DNA of 42,172 nucleotides from an uncultured Ignavibacterium sp. (lineage in GTDB: Bacteria; Bacteroidota; Ignavibacteria; Ignavibacteriales; Ignavibacteriaceae), in the NCBI GenBank assembly GCA_937125135.1, contig CAKZLD010000038.1:1-42172 (forward strand). Reading direction: 5' to 3'. Below are positions 28,835-33,853 of this stretch, one piece after another (positions within the stretch are counted from its first letter, which is position 1; each line of letters starts with the position of its first letter). The position numbers and the translations under genes were made by a program. Under the pieces are notes generated by a model. The model did no database searches, had not been told where the DNA came from, and was given only the letters and a program-made list of their open reading frames with translations.

Positions 28835-28860
28835 ACAAAAAAGCCGTCAAATGACGGCTT
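28835..28860 (-). terminator. Rho-independent terminator of the cytochrome operon
   Basis: AAGCCGTC (28841-28848) pairs with GACGGCTT (28853-28860) around a four-base loop; on the minus strand six T's follow. It lies five bases after the stop of the 7-haem lipoprotein gene. Confidence 0.92.
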
Positions 28861-28865
28861 AAATT

Positions 28866-29774
28866 TTAATAATCTCTTTCCTGCCCGAATATATTCAGTT
28901 TACCATTTATGTGTTTTGAAGGATCAGTGATAACATATTTACCTCCAACTAAAGCGACTACTCCAGCATGGCAAGTCTCACAAGTTCCAACATTCGGATG
29001 TGTACCACCTTGAGCAGAGGTTTTGGGGAGAGAATTTCCTGTATCTTTATTCCCATGACAAGTTCCACATTTACCACCTTCAGAGCCAGAAGTAAAAGAT
29101 ACTACATAATCCAAATTTCCATTTTTGAAATAACCGTGACAATAGGTATTTGAACAAGAATTAGTTTCAAAATTATAAGATGGATTTGGAGTAAATAGAG
29201 GCAAACTTGCATCATAATCTGTCGTTCCTGTTTCGTTGGTTTGAGTTTTGGTTAAATTACCAAAAATAATTTCTGAACGAGGAGTGCTGTCGAAATGTCC
29301 CTCTGATAAAAACAATGTGGGAACTTTATGACACTCATTGCATTCAACTGCTTTTCCTGATGAAGCTGCATAAAGATGTTTTACATGTGCACCGACTCCT
29401 CTTGAACTTGAGCTGATGCTTCCATCTAATGCCCTCGGTGGAGCAATTTTAGTCGGGTCAGCAAAATCGCCGTGGCAAGTATTACAAGCTTCGGGACCTG
29501 TTGGTTGTGTATGACAAGTCAAACAATTTCCACTTGCTTCTTTTATTATACCACCTTGATAATTTGCTCCGTGACATTGTTTACATTCTTTCATTGTCCA
29601 GTCAGTGGAAGCAATCAACTTCCCATGAAAATCAGGAGACGTTGGATTTTTAATTCCCGGTTTATGAATATTTACCGAAGGCGAAGAAGGCAAATCTTTA
29701 TTCATCTCACTGCAGGAAATAAAAATCAAAATTGAAAATGATAATAACGCTATTGTTTTAAATAATTTTTTCAT
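28866..29774 (-). CDS. Multihaem c-type cytochrome lipoprotein (seven haem motifs)
   Basis: The 302-residue protein has a lipoprotein signal peptide with lipobox LIFIS-C21, so it should be lipid-anchored, probably at the outer membrane. Six CxxCH motifs (64, 84, 97, 145, 236, 265) and one CxxxxCH (207-213, CSNTYCH) give up to seven covalent haems. The CxxxxCH/CxxCH combination is characteristic of cytochromes first catalogued in Geobacter. The motif-poor part around 150-205 could hold a distal ligand region. It is the last gene of the cytochrome operon, four bases behind the 14-haem gene and directly before the terminator. By position and topology it could be the outer-surface end of an electron conduit. 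Haem number is predicted from motifs only. Confidence 0.9.
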   Translation of the reverse strand: MKKLFKTIALLSFSILIFISCSEMNKDLPSSPSVNIHKPGIKNPTSPDFHGKLIASTDWTMKECKQCHGANYQGGIIKEASGNCLTCHTQPTGPEACNTCHGDFADPTKIAPPRALDGSISSSSRGVGAHVKHLYAASSGKAVECNECHKVPTLFLSEGHFDSTPRSEIIFGNLTKTQTNETGTTDYDASLPLFTPNPSYNFETNSCSNTYCHGYFKNGNLDYVVSFTSGSEGGKCGTCHGNKDTGNSLPKTSAQGGTHPNVGTCETCHAGVVALVGGKYVITDPSKHINGKLNIFGQERDY

Positions 29775-29778
29775 ATTT

Positions 29779-30972
29779 CTACCTATGACAATAATTACAA
29801 AAACCGGAAGTTATCGGTGAATTAGGATTAGCATTTGTATGACAGTTATAACAAATCGAACCTTGTGTGTCGTGCCAATCTCCTTTCTGATCTTTCATAA
29901 ATCCAGTTATGTGAGTTTTGGGATTAGTTCCTTTTATTCCATCACTATCTAAATGACAGGTTATGCAAACCGCATCTCCTCCATTCACATCGTGACAAGA
30001 GCTGCATCTTTCAATATCGCGTTTTGCTAAGGTAGCGTGCAATCCACCGCCAGTTCCAACACCTATCGTAAAGAAATTTGGTTTCAAATGTGTTGCAGGC
30101 ATAATTCCACTGTAAGCAAAATCGGTACTTTCTGAAGCATGGCAGGTTGCACAAAATGTTTCCGTCTGATGACAAGATTGGCATTCAGCCGTTTTGCCTT
30201 TTGCATCAAATCCGTGAGTAAATCTGTAATTAATTTCATGTACTCTTCTTATAGCTTGTTGCTTTGGCCCATCAACAAAATTGCTTGGATAATAAGGTTG
30301 ATAAAAATCAGTTTTAAGGTTTACTTCTGTTATTACACTCGTAGCAGCGTGACAATCTTCACAACTGTGATTATCATGACACATTGCACAATTCGCACCT
30401 ACCATTTGCGCAGAGAATTTATGCGTGTTAATGAATCTTGCCACTTTATGATTTTGAGGGAATAAGTTTGCTGTAGATATATGACAGGATTCGCAAGCAT
30501 TTGATGCAACTGTTTTATCATTATGACAAGCATAACAATTTTCCATTGGTGGATTTGCTGCTACCGCCTGCCAGCTGTAATCAACTTCCGTTAATCCTTT
30601 ATGACAAGATTCACAATCCATATTCTGATTTTCAATATGGAATTTATGATTGAAAATTAACTCCGATTTCTCTTTTTCTATCGGTTCATAAGTATCTCCG
30701 ATATGGCAAGTGCTGCATTCATTTTCATTGTTTACATCGTGACAAGATGAACAGTTATCGTGATTGGGAAACAGTCTGTCGTTCAGAGAAATGCTTTCTG
30801 CAACAGCACTGTGACAAGTTTTACAATCTACTAATTCTGCGTGTACAGAATGTGAAAACTTGATTTTAACTTCTTTTTCATCAACTTGATATTGATAATT
30901 GTTTCTTGAAGCTATGAAAAGAAGTGATACTGATATTAAAACTACAATACTGTAAAATAATTTTATTTTCAT
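29779..30972 (-). CDS. Fourteen-haem c-type cytochrome
   Basis: This is a 397-residue exported protein with an N-terminal hydrophobic segment (about 4-21) that is either a signal peptide or a membrane anchor; no lipobox is seen. Fourteen CxxCH motifs begin at residues 50, 74, 86, 120, 146, 160, 195, 204, 264, 274, 323, 336, 374 and 392. Spare histidines in patterns such as FSHSVH (39-44), FNHKFH (107-112), NTHKFS (182-187) and FTHGF (251-255) suggest bis-histidine ligation, as in cytochrome c3/c7-like wires. One haem per 28 residues suits a long electron wire. It lies ten bases behind the beta-barrel gene and four before the lipoprotein gene. A role as a periplasmic or barrel-inserted wire is inferred from the gene order. 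Confidence 0.9.
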   Translation of the reverse strand: MKIKLFYSIVVLISVSLLFIASRNNYQYQVDEKEVKIKFSHSVHAELVDCKTCHSAVAESISLNDRLFPNHDNCSSCHDVNNENECSTCHIGDTYEPIEKEKSELIFNHKFHIENQNMDCESCHKGLTEVDYSWQAVAANPPMENCYACHNDKTVASNACESCHISTANLFPQNHKVARFINTHKFSAQMVGANCAMCHDNHSCEDCHAATSVITEVNLKTDFYQPYYPSNFVDGPKQQAIRRVHEINYRFTHGFDAKGKTAECQSCHQTETFCATCHASESTDFAYSGIMPATHLKPNFFTIGVGTGGGLHATLAKRDIERCSSCHDVNGGDAVCITCHLDSDGIKGTNPKTHITGFMKDQKGDWHDTQGSICYNCHTNANPNSPITSGFCNYCHR

Positions 30973-30982
30973 TCTGCACTCA

Positions 30983-32251
30983 CTAAAAATTTAAATTAAA
31001 CCAATGATTCAGTTTAAAGAATACTCTGAAATCATTTTTGTAAATTTTGTTATCTAAATACTGTCCTTGTAAATCAAAAGATAATTTTCTGAAGGGTCTG
31101 AAATTTAATCCAGCAGAAAGAGTTGTTATATTGTTCGTTTCTGAATCTTTACTAACTTTATAACTTGCATAGGACAAACCAATATTTGGAGTTATTAACC
31201 CGTCAAGAAAAGTATATGCAGAATAAAGAGAAACAGCATCCATTTCTCCAGCATAACCAAAAGTTTTTCTGTAACTAAAGGTTCCAAATTTTGTTGATGC
31301 TCCTAATCCAATTCTAGATGAATTATCATCTTTGAATTTTACATAACCGAATTGAGCAAGTATTGTATAGTTTTTATCAATCTTGTAATCCAGACCTGCT
31401 TCGATTTCCTGTGTGTTTCCATAATCAAAAACAGAAAAGATAGAGTTATATCTTACTCGTGGCTCTCTGTAATTATAGTAAAGGTTTACTCCTAAATCTT
31501 TAATCTTTTCAATTCGTGCATCGAGTTCAACTTTAGAAGTTTGTTTAAAGTTTAAGTCATATTCATATTTGGAATTGATAAATAAAAAGTTCTCTGAGAA
31601 ATAAGAAGCTTCACCACTTAGATATTGAAATTGATTCGATTTATTTGAAATTAAAACCTGAATCGGATTAAGATTCGGATCAAGTCTTAATGCTTTGTAA
31701 TCAGTTGGTTTGAAATTTTTATTTACATATCCAAATGCAAATTGAAAATCTTGAAGAATAGTTGTTGATAATCTTGCTCCGGCAATATAATTATCAGAAA
31801 AATTTTCAATCAGTTCTAATTTTTGATAGGCTGGTACATTACCTCCATAAAAACCAGTAAGCTTGAAGTCATACTTATTTAGTGAGACAGAGGCACCATC
31901 CATCAATCCACCAACGACACTGTTTATTATAGGTTGGCGACCAATTTTAACATTTGCAATATCGAAAAGATTTCTTGCTTCAAGATATAAATTATAGAAA
32001 CGCAATCTTGGATCAGAATCTAATTTCTGAGCTAAATCAGTTTCCAGATTTAAGTTTGACCGCAATGAAAAATTTTCGTAATTGAAATTGAGATTTAACA
32101 TTTGGTAGGCTCTTAAGTGATTCTGAGAAACACTTGCAGAATCAAATCTTTCAAACATATAAACAGAAGAAGAAAATCTTCCATTTAAATTTTGAGAGAA
32201 AAGAACTCCTCCAACAGTTAAAAACAGCATTAGAAGTAGTTTTTTGTTCAT
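30983..32251 (-). CDS. Outer-membrane beta-barrel protein, probable porin of a porin-cytochrome complex
   Basis: This 422-residue protein has a signal peptide ending near LFSQ (residue 20) and alternating amphipathic strands throughout, for example LNLNFNYENFSLRSNLNLE (52-70). It ends in HWFNLNF with a terminal Phe, as is usual for outer-membrane barrels. KIGRQPIINSVVGGLMDG (about 102-119) recalls porin-like loops. It has no cysteine haem motif. It lies between a tetrahaem and a 14-haem cytochrome in one operon. In Geobacter-type porin-cytochrome complexes such a barrel holds a multihaem cytochrome across the outer membrane. Clear similarity to MtrB or the Geobacter porins cannot be shown by eye, so the role is inferred from context. 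GGGG/GGAA lies before the ATG. Confidence 0.75.
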   Translation of the reverse strand: MNKKLLLMLFLTVGGVLFSQNLNGRFSSSVYMFERFDSASVSQNHLRAYQMLNLNFNYENFSLRSNLNLETDLAQKLDSDPRLRFYNLYLEARNLFDIANVKIGRQPIINSVVGGLMDGASVSLNKYDFKLTGFYGGNVPAYQKLELIENFSDNYIAGARLSTTILQDFQFAFGYVNKNFKPTDYKALRLDPNLNPIQVLISNKSNQFQYLSGEASYFSENFLFINSKYEYDLNFKQTSKVELDARIEKIKDLGVNLYYNYREPRVRYNSIFSVFDYGNTQEIEAGLDYKIDKNYTILAQFGYVKFKDDNSSRIGLGASTKFGTFSYRKTFGYAGEMDAVSLYSAYTFLDGLITPNIGLSYASYKVSKDSETNNITTLSAGLNFRPFRKLSFDLQGQYLDNKIYKNDFRVFFKLNHWFNLNF

Positions 32252-32262
32252 AAAATATTCCC

Positions 32263-32802
32263 CTATTTAGTTTTAGGTACAGGATGCTTAATTTTTTCCC
32301 ACGATTCTTCGAAGTTGAATCCAATGTAAGTTGGACTTTCAACATTATGACAGGTAATGCAGTAAGCTTCAATATTTTCAAACAAAACTAAACCTTTTTG
32401 TACAGCGAGTGCACGGTCTTTCATAACTTTCATATCTTTATATTCAGAGCCGGGACCGTGACATGTTTCGCACTGAACTCCGTCTTCAATCTTAAATTTC
32501 TTACCTATTAAAGAAGCATCCACGTTATAACCAGAAGCGTGACATTTAAGACAATCAAAATTTTCATAAGCATTACCGGAAAGACCTTTTTCTTTCATAA
32601 CTTCAGCAGCACGTTCAGTTTTGAGCGTTTCATAAGCACGGGAGTGTTTACTTTCTTTCCAAATTCCCAATTGATTCCCCTGTTTTTCAGTTTTATGACA
32701 CATTACACATGGTTCAACACCAATATATCCAAATCCATTTTGAGCATTTATTAAAGTGGGGAGGGTAAAAGAGAGAATTAAAAGTAATTTAACAGAATGC
32801 AT
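32263..32802 (-). CDS. Periplasmic tetrahaem cytochrome c (cytochrome c554-like)
   Basis: This is a 179-residue secreted protein: signal peptide 1-20 ending INA, then YIGVEPCVMCHKTE. Four CxxCH motifs begin at residues 32, 84, 111 and 148. Its pattern - an early CxxCH, LGIWKESKHSRAYETL (45-60), CLKCHASGY (84-92), GVQCETCHGPGSEY (108-121), then CITCHNVESPTYIGFNF (148-164) - matches the cytochrome c554-like tetrahaem family. Such proteins carry electrons in the periplasm. It is the first gene of the operon, with GGAG before the ATG, and stands 11 bases before the barrel gene. It could deliver electrons from the inner membrane to the 14-haem cytochrome. That direction is inference. All four haem motifs look intact. 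Confidence 0.92.
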   Translation of the reverse strand: MHSVKLLLILSFTLPTLINAQNGFGYIGVEPCVMCHKTEKQGNQLGIWKESKHSRAYETLKTERAAEVMKEKGLSGNAYENFDCLKCHASGYNVDASLIGKKFKIEDGVQCETCHGPGSEYKDMKVMKDRALAVQKGLVLFENIEAYCITCHNVESPTYIGFNFEESWEKIKHPVPKTK

Positions 32803-33457: not shown

Positions 33458-33853
33458 ATGCAGTTTATTGAAGATTTAATTGTTGTTAAAGATTCCAATC
33501 TGCACGGGAAAGGATTATTCACGTTATCAGATATTCCTCAAAGAACGGTGATTATGAAAATTATTGGTGATGAGATTGATGAAAATGAATGTATCAGAAG
33601 AGAGAATGAAGAAGATAATGTTTATATCTTTTATAAAGATGAGAACAAATACATTGATACGATAAATTCTGACAAAATTAAATTCATAAATCATAATTGT
33701 GATTGCAACTGCTACATAGATGAAGATGATGAAGGAAACTTAATTTTGGTTGCTTTAAGAAATATCTCTGTAGGAGAAGAACTAACAATTGATTATGGCT
33801 ATGATGAAATATACAGCAGTTGTAGTTGTAACAGTTGTGATAATAAAAAATAG
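33458..33853 (+). CDS. Small SET-domain protein, probable lysine methyltransferase
   Basis: The 131 residues make up little more than a SET domain, which moves methyl groups from S-adenosylmethionine to lysine side chains. The N-terminal SNLHGKGLFTLSDIPQRTVI (13-32) is the usual SET entry. FINHNCDCNCYI (76-87) is the N-H-x-C-x-x-N-C cofactor site. GEELTIDYGYD (106-116) holds the catalytic Tyr region. C122, C124 and C127 form a short post-SET cysteine cluster that could bind zinc with a cysteine of the NHxC motif. The central region is shorter than in eukaryotic enzymes, as in other bacterial SET proteins. The substrate is unknown. It follows the adhesin-E-like gene by three bases, and its stop codon abuts that of clpS on the other strand. 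Confidence 0.88.
   Translation: MQFIEDLIVVKDSNLHGKGLFTLSDIPQRTVIMKIIGDEIDENECIRRENEEDNVYIFYKDENKYIDTINSDKIKFINHNCDCNCYIDEDDEGNLILVALRNISVGEELTIDYGYDEIYSSCSCNSCDNKK

What the first reader, a model, noticed from the sequence alone, without database searches (positions are those of the whole stretch)
28866..32802. Compact four-gene porin-cytochrome cluster with up to 25 haem sites
Seen: a tetrahaem c554-like protein, a beta-barrel ending in Phe, a 14-CxxCH cytochrome and a 7-motif lipoprotein lie in one operon with its own promoter and terminator. Known: Geobacter- and Shewanella-type conduits combine a barrel with a periplasmic and a surface multihaem cytochrome. Inferred: this is an electron path across the outer membrane, with the lipoprotein at the outside. 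The barrel does not obviously match MtrB by eye, so the set could be a distinct variant.
Basis: partly seen in the sequence, partly recalled or inferred. Interest (0 to 1): 0.6.

Follow-up and report, generated by a model that had tools for sequence, protein, structure and literature searches.

The report
Ignavibacterium porin-cytochrome electron conduit
The four genes encode an outer-membrane wire that most likely lets the bacterium pass electrons from its respiratory chain to solids outside the cell; the same gene set was published for Ignavibacterium album in 2014, so the type is known, and the new part is that it is a near-constant single-copy trait of most of its bacterial class.

Summary
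On the - strand, 28866-32802, a tetrahaem c554-like protein, a cysteine-free barrel, a 14-CxxCH cytochrome and a lipoprotein (6 CxxCH + 1 CxxxxCH) form one tight operon ending at a terminator; 25 haem sites. The set matches the published Ignavibacterium album pcc cluster (IALB_1837-1840; Shi 2014, PMC4245776), including its 14-haem, 400-residue periplasmic cytochrome. The nearest database relatives are Ignavibacterium MAGs (90 and 87% barrel identity). So it is a new species' copy of a known porin-cytochrome (PCC) system.
What I add: gene order is almost invariant (tetrahaem upstream 64/66, cytochrome downstream 67/67, haem lipoprotein next 55/55). The barrel is single-copy in 95/149 sampled class genomes and nearly absent from the rest of the phylum. 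The core is constant (14 haems in 64/67); the lipoprotein varies up to 29 motifs. AlphaFold gives a barrel of about 22 strands with conserved lumen and outer loops. Genomes lacking the barrel tend also to lack two candidate quinol-oxidising multihaem proteins. Function is inferred from anatomy, synteny and Fe(III)-reducing relatives; nothing was measured.

The parts
32263..32802 (-). tetrahaem c554-like periplasmic cytochrome (179 aa, 4 CxxCH, leader ending INA|Q): electron entry/shuttle protein
   Evidence: Pfam Cytochrome_C554 72 bits vs cut-off 20.8; immediately upstream of the barrel in 64 of 66 related loci
30983..32251 (-). outer-membrane beta-barrel (422 aa, no Cys, ends in Phe): sheath of the conduit
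   Evidence: AlphaFold pLDDT 85.2, 24 strand segments, read as 22 barrel strands plus one short hairpin; Foldseek to outer-membrane barrels; conserved across the class; lumen-facing residues and outer loops more conserved than lipid-facing residues and inner turns
29779..30972 (-). 14-haem c-type cytochrome (397 aa): the wire expected inside or below the barrel
   Evidence: 14 CxxCH; triheme c7-type domains (GSU1996-like 3ov0); exactly 14 haems in 64 of 67 relatives; 12 further invariant His that can act as second haem ligands
28866..29774 (-). haem lipoprotein (302 aa, 6 CxxCH + 1 CxxxxCH): surface tip of the conduit
   Evidence: lipobox in 91 of 91 relatives with the post-Cys consensus C-S-(D/E)-L-x-(E/D/N)-(D/N)-I
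29712..29714 (-). lipobox cysteine codon (Cys21), followed by S-E-M-N-K-D
   Evidence: sequence; family comparison of the leaders
29136..29156 (-). atypical haem motif CSNTYCH (CxxxxCH) of the lipoprotein
   Evidence: inside the GSu_C4xC__C2xCH match
28841..28860 (-). intrinsic terminator of the operon: 8-pair stem AAGCCGTC/GACGGCTT, loop of 4, T-run

Best explanation
It is a porin-cytochrome (PCC) electron conduit of an Ignavibacterium species, the counterpart of IALB_1837-1840 of I. album. The tetrahaem c554-like protein collects electrons in the periplasm. They probably come from the quinol pool through the NapC/NirT-type and multihaem-cytochrome b561 proteins encoded elsewhere in the genome. 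The 14-haem cytochrome sits in or under the barrel and carries electrons through the outer membrane. The surface lipoprotein with about 7 haems hands them to an acceptor outside, such as Fe(III) minerals, humics, an electrode or a partner cell. Shown by computation: the genes, motifs, barrel prediction, synteny, distribution and conservation. Inferred: the assembly, the membrane sidedness, the direction of flow and the acceptor.
For: Coordinates and motifs. Near-invariant gene order in related loci: 64/66, 67/67, 55/55. Barrel in 54/59 close relatives and 95/149 of the class, as one copy per genome; extra hits are pieces of split genes or weak partial matches. Of 58 hits in 395 phylum genomes, only one lies outside the class, and it is weak. 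Barrel fold. Conserved lumen (p 2.5e-5 against lipid side) and outer loops (p 5e-5 against inner turns), as expected of a filled barrel with fixed partners. c7-type chain in the cytochrome. Lipobox in 91/91 with a conserved, often acidic post-Cys stretch resembling Bacteroidota surface-export signals (PMC5080379). In several other families of the class the cluster lies beside Rieske/cytochrome b/multihaem, NapC-type and CcmF genes. Co-loss with the multihaem-b561 protein (p 1.6e-4) and the NapC-type protein (p 0.006). Published match: I. album 14-haem, 400-residue cytochrome plus porin (PMC4245776). Melioribacter roseus, reported to carry a PCC, reduces Fe(III) (PMC6137239).
Against: No experiment on this cluster was found. 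AlphaFold could not model the 14-haem protein (pLDDT 55), so its fit in the barrel is untested. The barrel has no detectable sequence relation to any solved protein. The window's own post-Cys sequence (SEMNKD) is weaker than the proven export signals. The co-loss tests ignore shared ancestry and rest on five genomes in which the barrel was not found, one of them an incomplete draft.
Confidence: 0.85

Rival explanations
1. The same conduit runs inward: electrons from outside, such as Fe(II), a cathode or a partner cell, enter through the lipoprotein and 14-haem wire to the periplasm.
For: The parts work in either direction; outer-membrane Fe(II)-oxidation systems use the same kinds of parts (established knowledge; Shi 2014 overview). 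Class members near this locus carry Rieske/cytochrome b genes that could run either way.
Against: A dedicated surface cytochrome is present in every readable relative, whereas Fe(II)-oxidising clusters often lack one. Known relatives are heterotrophs, some of them Fe(III) reducers. Candidate quinol oxidases are present and co-occur.
Confidence: 0.1
2. The 14-haem cytochrome is not in the outer membrane but anchored in the inner membrane by its N-terminal helix, reaching across the periplasm to touch the barrel.
For: Hydrophobic stretch of about 17 residues with conserved K2, K4 and Tyr7 (Tyr in 50 of 54), unusual for a discarded signal peptide; helix 2-23 predicted with pLDDT about 90; N-terminal part resembles the c7-type subunit A of alternative complex III (8k9e, 6btm).
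Against: Ala at position 22 in 45 of 54 fits signal peptidase cleavage, and several distant homologues have clear AxA-type sites (AEA|GDG, SAVA|GED, SNA|GTE). Gene adjacency to the barrel is absolute.
Confidence: 0.08
3. The barrel is a solute or metal porin and the cytochromes act as a separate soluble redox relay or terminal reductase.
For: No barrel homology to known conduit porins in Pfam (MtrB_PioB not hit); weak general porin and LptD profile similarity.
Against: Synteny in every readable relative; conserved lumen and outer loops; the surface lipoprotein would have no electron source; published BLAST-based assignment as PCC porin (PMC4245776).
Confidence: 0.04

Closest known systems
Ignavibacterium album JCM 16511 pcc cluster IALB_1837-1840 (Shi et al. 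2014, PMC4245776)
   Same: Same genus, same four-part set; 14-haem periplasmic cytochrome of about 400 residues; outer-membrane cytochrome with an atypical haem motif; extra periplasmic cytochrome.
   Different: No difference of kind found. The I. album sequences themselves were not retrieved by name, so percentage identity was not measured.
Geobacter sulfurreducens OmbB-OmaB-OmcB (PCC)
   Same: Porin-like barrel + periplasmic multihaem cytochrome + outer-membrane multihaem lipoprotein in one cluster; CxxxxCH/CxxCH domain also typical of Geobacter.
   Different: 14 instead of 8 haems in the periplasmic part and about 7 instead of 12 in the surface part; tetrahaem c554-like protein in the operon; the I. 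album counterpart was published as lying outside the five PCC groups.
Shewanella MtrCAB / MtrB_PioB family
   Same: Works alike in outline: barrel sheath, cytochrome inside, cytochrome outside.
   Different: Barrel has no MtrB_PioB match and about 22 rather than 26 strands; the 14-haem protein matches c7-type chains, and MtrA was not among its matches; PF11854 absent from this genome.
GSU1996 dodecahaem 'nanowire' cytochrome (3ov0)
   Same: N-terminal about 130 residues of the 14-haem protein match its triheme c7 repeats (E 2e-22).
   Different: GSU1996 is not part of a barrel operon of this kind (general knowledge, not tested); most of the C-terminal half has no such match.

Membership tests
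Porin-cytochrome (PCC) system | gene for a porin-like outer-membrane barrel | tested here: met
   AlphaFold barrel, pLDDT 85; Foldseek probability 1.00 to outer-membrane barrels
Porin-cytochrome (PCC) system | adjacent gene for a periplasmic multihaem c-type cytochrome | tested here: met
   14 CxxCH, 10 nt from the barrel gene; adjacent in 67/67 relatives; the periplasmic location itself is inferred from the leader
Porin-cytochrome (PCC) system | in most cases an outer-membrane multihaem cytochrome (lipoprotein) | tested here: met
   lipobox, 6+1 haem motifs; 55/55 relatives have a haem protein there; location inferred
Porin-cytochrome (PCC) system | sequence homology of the porin to OmbB | not testable with these tools
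   No OmbB sequence was at hand; Shi 2014 reports selection by BLAST E<0.01 against the Geobacter proteins, which picked up IALB_1839 (PMC4245776)
Porin-cytochrome (PCC) system | physical complex that moves electrons across the outer membrane | not testable with these tools
   needs purification and liposome assay
MtrCAB / MtrB_PioB | barrel matches MtrB_PioB (PF11854) | tested here: not met
   no match in 36 family members at E<=0.1; none in own genome, while 3 of 59 relatives do have a PF11854 protein
MtrCAB / MtrB_PioB | 26-strand barrel | tested here: not met
   24 strand segments in the model, of which about 22 form the barrel by my reading
Cytochrome c554 (CycA of Nitrosomonas) | equivalog score over cut-off | tested here: not met
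   52 bits against a cut-off of 400; only the general Pfam C554 domain is met

The most novel reading that the evidence does not exclude
This is a third, independently built architecture of outer-membrane wire: a barrel of about 22 strands with unusually conserved outer loops around a 14-haem c7-type chain unrelated to MtrA. It would be inherited vertically as a core single-copy trait of the class Ignavibacteria, with a constant core and a freely exchanged surface tip of up to 29 haem motifs.
Probability: 0.35. Interest if true: 0.5.

Novelty: new member of a known kind. Interest (0 to 1): 0.3.

Why it matters
The cluster itself is known. It matters mildly because the class-wide conservation suggests that exchange of electrons with the outside is a basic trait of Ignavibacteria, common in sediments, groundwater and bioreactors, rather than a speciality of a few Fe(III) reducers. 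A constant 14-haem core with an interchangeable surface cytochrome is also a clear, testable design rule, and this compact set would be a good target for a structure.

Tried and rejected
AlphaFold of the 14-haem cytochrome failed (pLDDT 55) and was not used beyond its N-terminal helix. Sequence searches of solved structures with the barrel gave nothing. Foldseek found only generic large barrels: ushers, AlgE and Occ porins. The promoter scan was at the shuffle expectation. Rieske/cytochrome b of the type next to the cluster in other families was not found in this genome; the MAG is 92% complete and the search had no positive control, so the absence is weak. Considered and dropped: MtrB membership (no PF11854 match) and Nitrosomonas c554 function (score far below cut-off). 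I first suspected an inner-membrane anchor on the 14-haem protein from its conserved Tyr7; AxA sites in distant homologues made that less likely. I could not establish whether one of the unnamed same-genus genomes (G005) is I. album itself.

Full report
OBSERVATION. Motif counts are 4, 0, 14, and 6 CxxCH plus one CxxxxCH; all 28 cysteines of the 14-haem protein are in haem motifs, the barrel has no cysteine, and the 23 other long window ORFs counted have no CxxCH. The CxxxxCH site sits in the Geobacter-type CxxxxCH/CxxCH domain. A good terminator hairpin with a T-run closes the operon at 28860-28841. A promoter could not be recognised: promoter-like sites in the region are at the shuffle expectation.

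ORIGIN. Database relatives at 90, 87, 67 and 66% barrel identity are MAGs labelled Ignavibacterium, so the window comes from an Ignavibacterium species; the genome held is a 2.7 Mb MAG.

KNOWN COUNTERPART. Shi et al. 2014 (PMC4245776) list one pcc cluster in I. [quoted passage not shown] Gene order and, where stated, sizes and haem counts agree with this window. The same paper says the I. album porin and periplasmic cytochrome fall outside its five phylogenetic groups. Later papers report such clusters in Melioribacter roseus and other Ignavibacteria (PMC7399161; PMC6137239). I could not retrieve the I. album proteins by name, so identity to them is not measured.

SYNTENY AND DISTRIBUTION. In loci fetched from named genomes, a tetrahaem protein lies upstream of the barrel in 64 of 66 that extend far enough, a multihaem cytochrome directly downstream in 67 of 67 (exactly 14 haems in 64), and a haem protein at the lipoprotein position after it in 55 of 55, with (6+1) motifs in 26 and up to (28+1) in others (loci, first listing). 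So the core is constant and the surface part varies. The barrel is found in 54 of 59 close relatives and 95 of 149 genomes sampled from the class, as a single copy: the few second hits are pieces of genes split between contigs or weak partial matches. Of 58 hits in 395 genomes of the phylum, only one lies outside the class, and it is weak. In distant families of the class the barrel is 28-39% identical; most but not all of those loci keep the tetrahaem protein, and the cytochrome has 11-14 haems.

STRUCTURE AND CONSERVATION. AlphaFold with 63 sequences gives an all-beta model (pLDDT 85.2, pTM 0.74) of 24 strand segments; I read them as 22 membrane strands plus one hairpin in an outer loop. Foldseek finds large outer-membrane barrels but no specific relative. 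With strands assigned from the model and sides by hydrophobic alternation, lumen-facing residues are more conserved than lipid-facing ones (3.03 vs 2.56 bits, p 2.5e-5), and outer loops more than inner turns (2.77 vs 2.04, p 5e-5). Outer loops are usually the most variable part of a barrel (general knowledge), so this suggests fixed partners inside and outside; it is indirect evidence. The 14-haem protein could not be modelled (pLDDT 55). By profile its N-terminal part matches the c7-type nanowire cytochrome GSU1996 (3ov0, E 2e-22) and the c7-type subunit of alternative complex III; weak MtrC matches appear, and MtrA is not among the matches. Twelve His outside the haem motifs are invariant in 54 relatives, so most haems can be bis-His ligated.

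EXPORT. The tetrahaem and barrel leaders look like ordinary cleaved signals (INA|Q, LFS|Q). All 91 lipoproteins examined have a lipobox followed by C-S-(D/E)-L-(K/Q)-(E/D/N)-(D/N)-I, with an acidic residue within +2 to +8 in 90. Bacteroidota surface-export signals are polar or basic, then acidic, e.g. SDDDD and SDDFE (PMC5080379). The resemblance supports surface display but was not tested. The 14-haem leader is less clear: conserved K2, K4 and Tyr7 are odd, while Ala22 and AxA sites in distant homologues favour cleavage.

INNER-MEMBRANE LINK. In several other families of the class the cluster abuts Rieske, cytochrome b, an 11-haem protein and, in some, a NapC/NirT-type protein and CcmF (L174, L179, L180, L182, L188); in another family it abuts multihaem and multihaem-b561 proteins (L050). 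In this genome a NapC/NirT-type 6+1-haem protein, a 13-haem-b561 fusion and a small cytochrome c lie together on another contig (L201). Across 59 genomes, absence of the barrel goes with absence of the multihaem-b561 protein (4 of 5 vs 2 of 54, p 1.6e-4) and the NapC-type protein (3 of 5 vs 3 of 54, p 0.006). These p-values ignore shared ancestry. Proteins of these types (ImcH, CbcL) are proposed quinol oxidases for extracellular electron transfer, and homologues have been reported in Ignavibacteriae (PMC6295460).

NOT MTR. No MtrB_PioB match in 36 barrel relatives; PF11854 is absent from this genome and present in only 3 of 59 relatives. It works like Mtr in outline but is not a member.

VERDICT. 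A real, intact PCC electron conduit, already described for the genus. New here, as far as the papers searched show: the class-wide conservation, the constant core with variable tip, the conserved barrel loops and the co-loss with candidate quinol oxidases. Direction outward is most likely; the acceptor is unknown.

Noticed in passing
L201:2800-6852 (same genome, contig C188): NapC/NirT-type 6+1-haem protein, 13-haem protein fused to cytochrome b561, and a monohaem cytochrome c in a row, with response regulators nearby: likely quinol-side partner module.
   Followed up: partly
window 30900-30972 (N-terminus of the 14-haem protein) and relatives in alignment A3: Leader of the 14-haem protein has conserved K2, K4 and Tyr7 (50 of 54), unusual for a cleaved signal peptide; possible membrane anchor.
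   Followed up: partly
L174, L179, L180, L182, L188: In other families of the class the porin-cytochrome cluster sits beside Rieske, cytochrome b, 11-haem and, in some, NapC-type and CcmF genes, so a near-complete quinol-to-surface path lies in one locus.
   Followed up: partly
L038:4978-7602: In one Melioribacteraceae relative the surface lipoprotein position holds an 874-residue protein with 28 CxxCH plus one CxxxxCH.
   Followed up: no
L203, L204, L205 (G022, G029, G032): Three relatives of the family carry an MtrB_PioB-type barrel in addition to this barrel.
   Followed up: no
window 33458-33853 (+): Small protein next to the operon that looks SET-domain-like by eye, kept next to the cluster in other genomes of the family; function unclear.
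   Followed up: no
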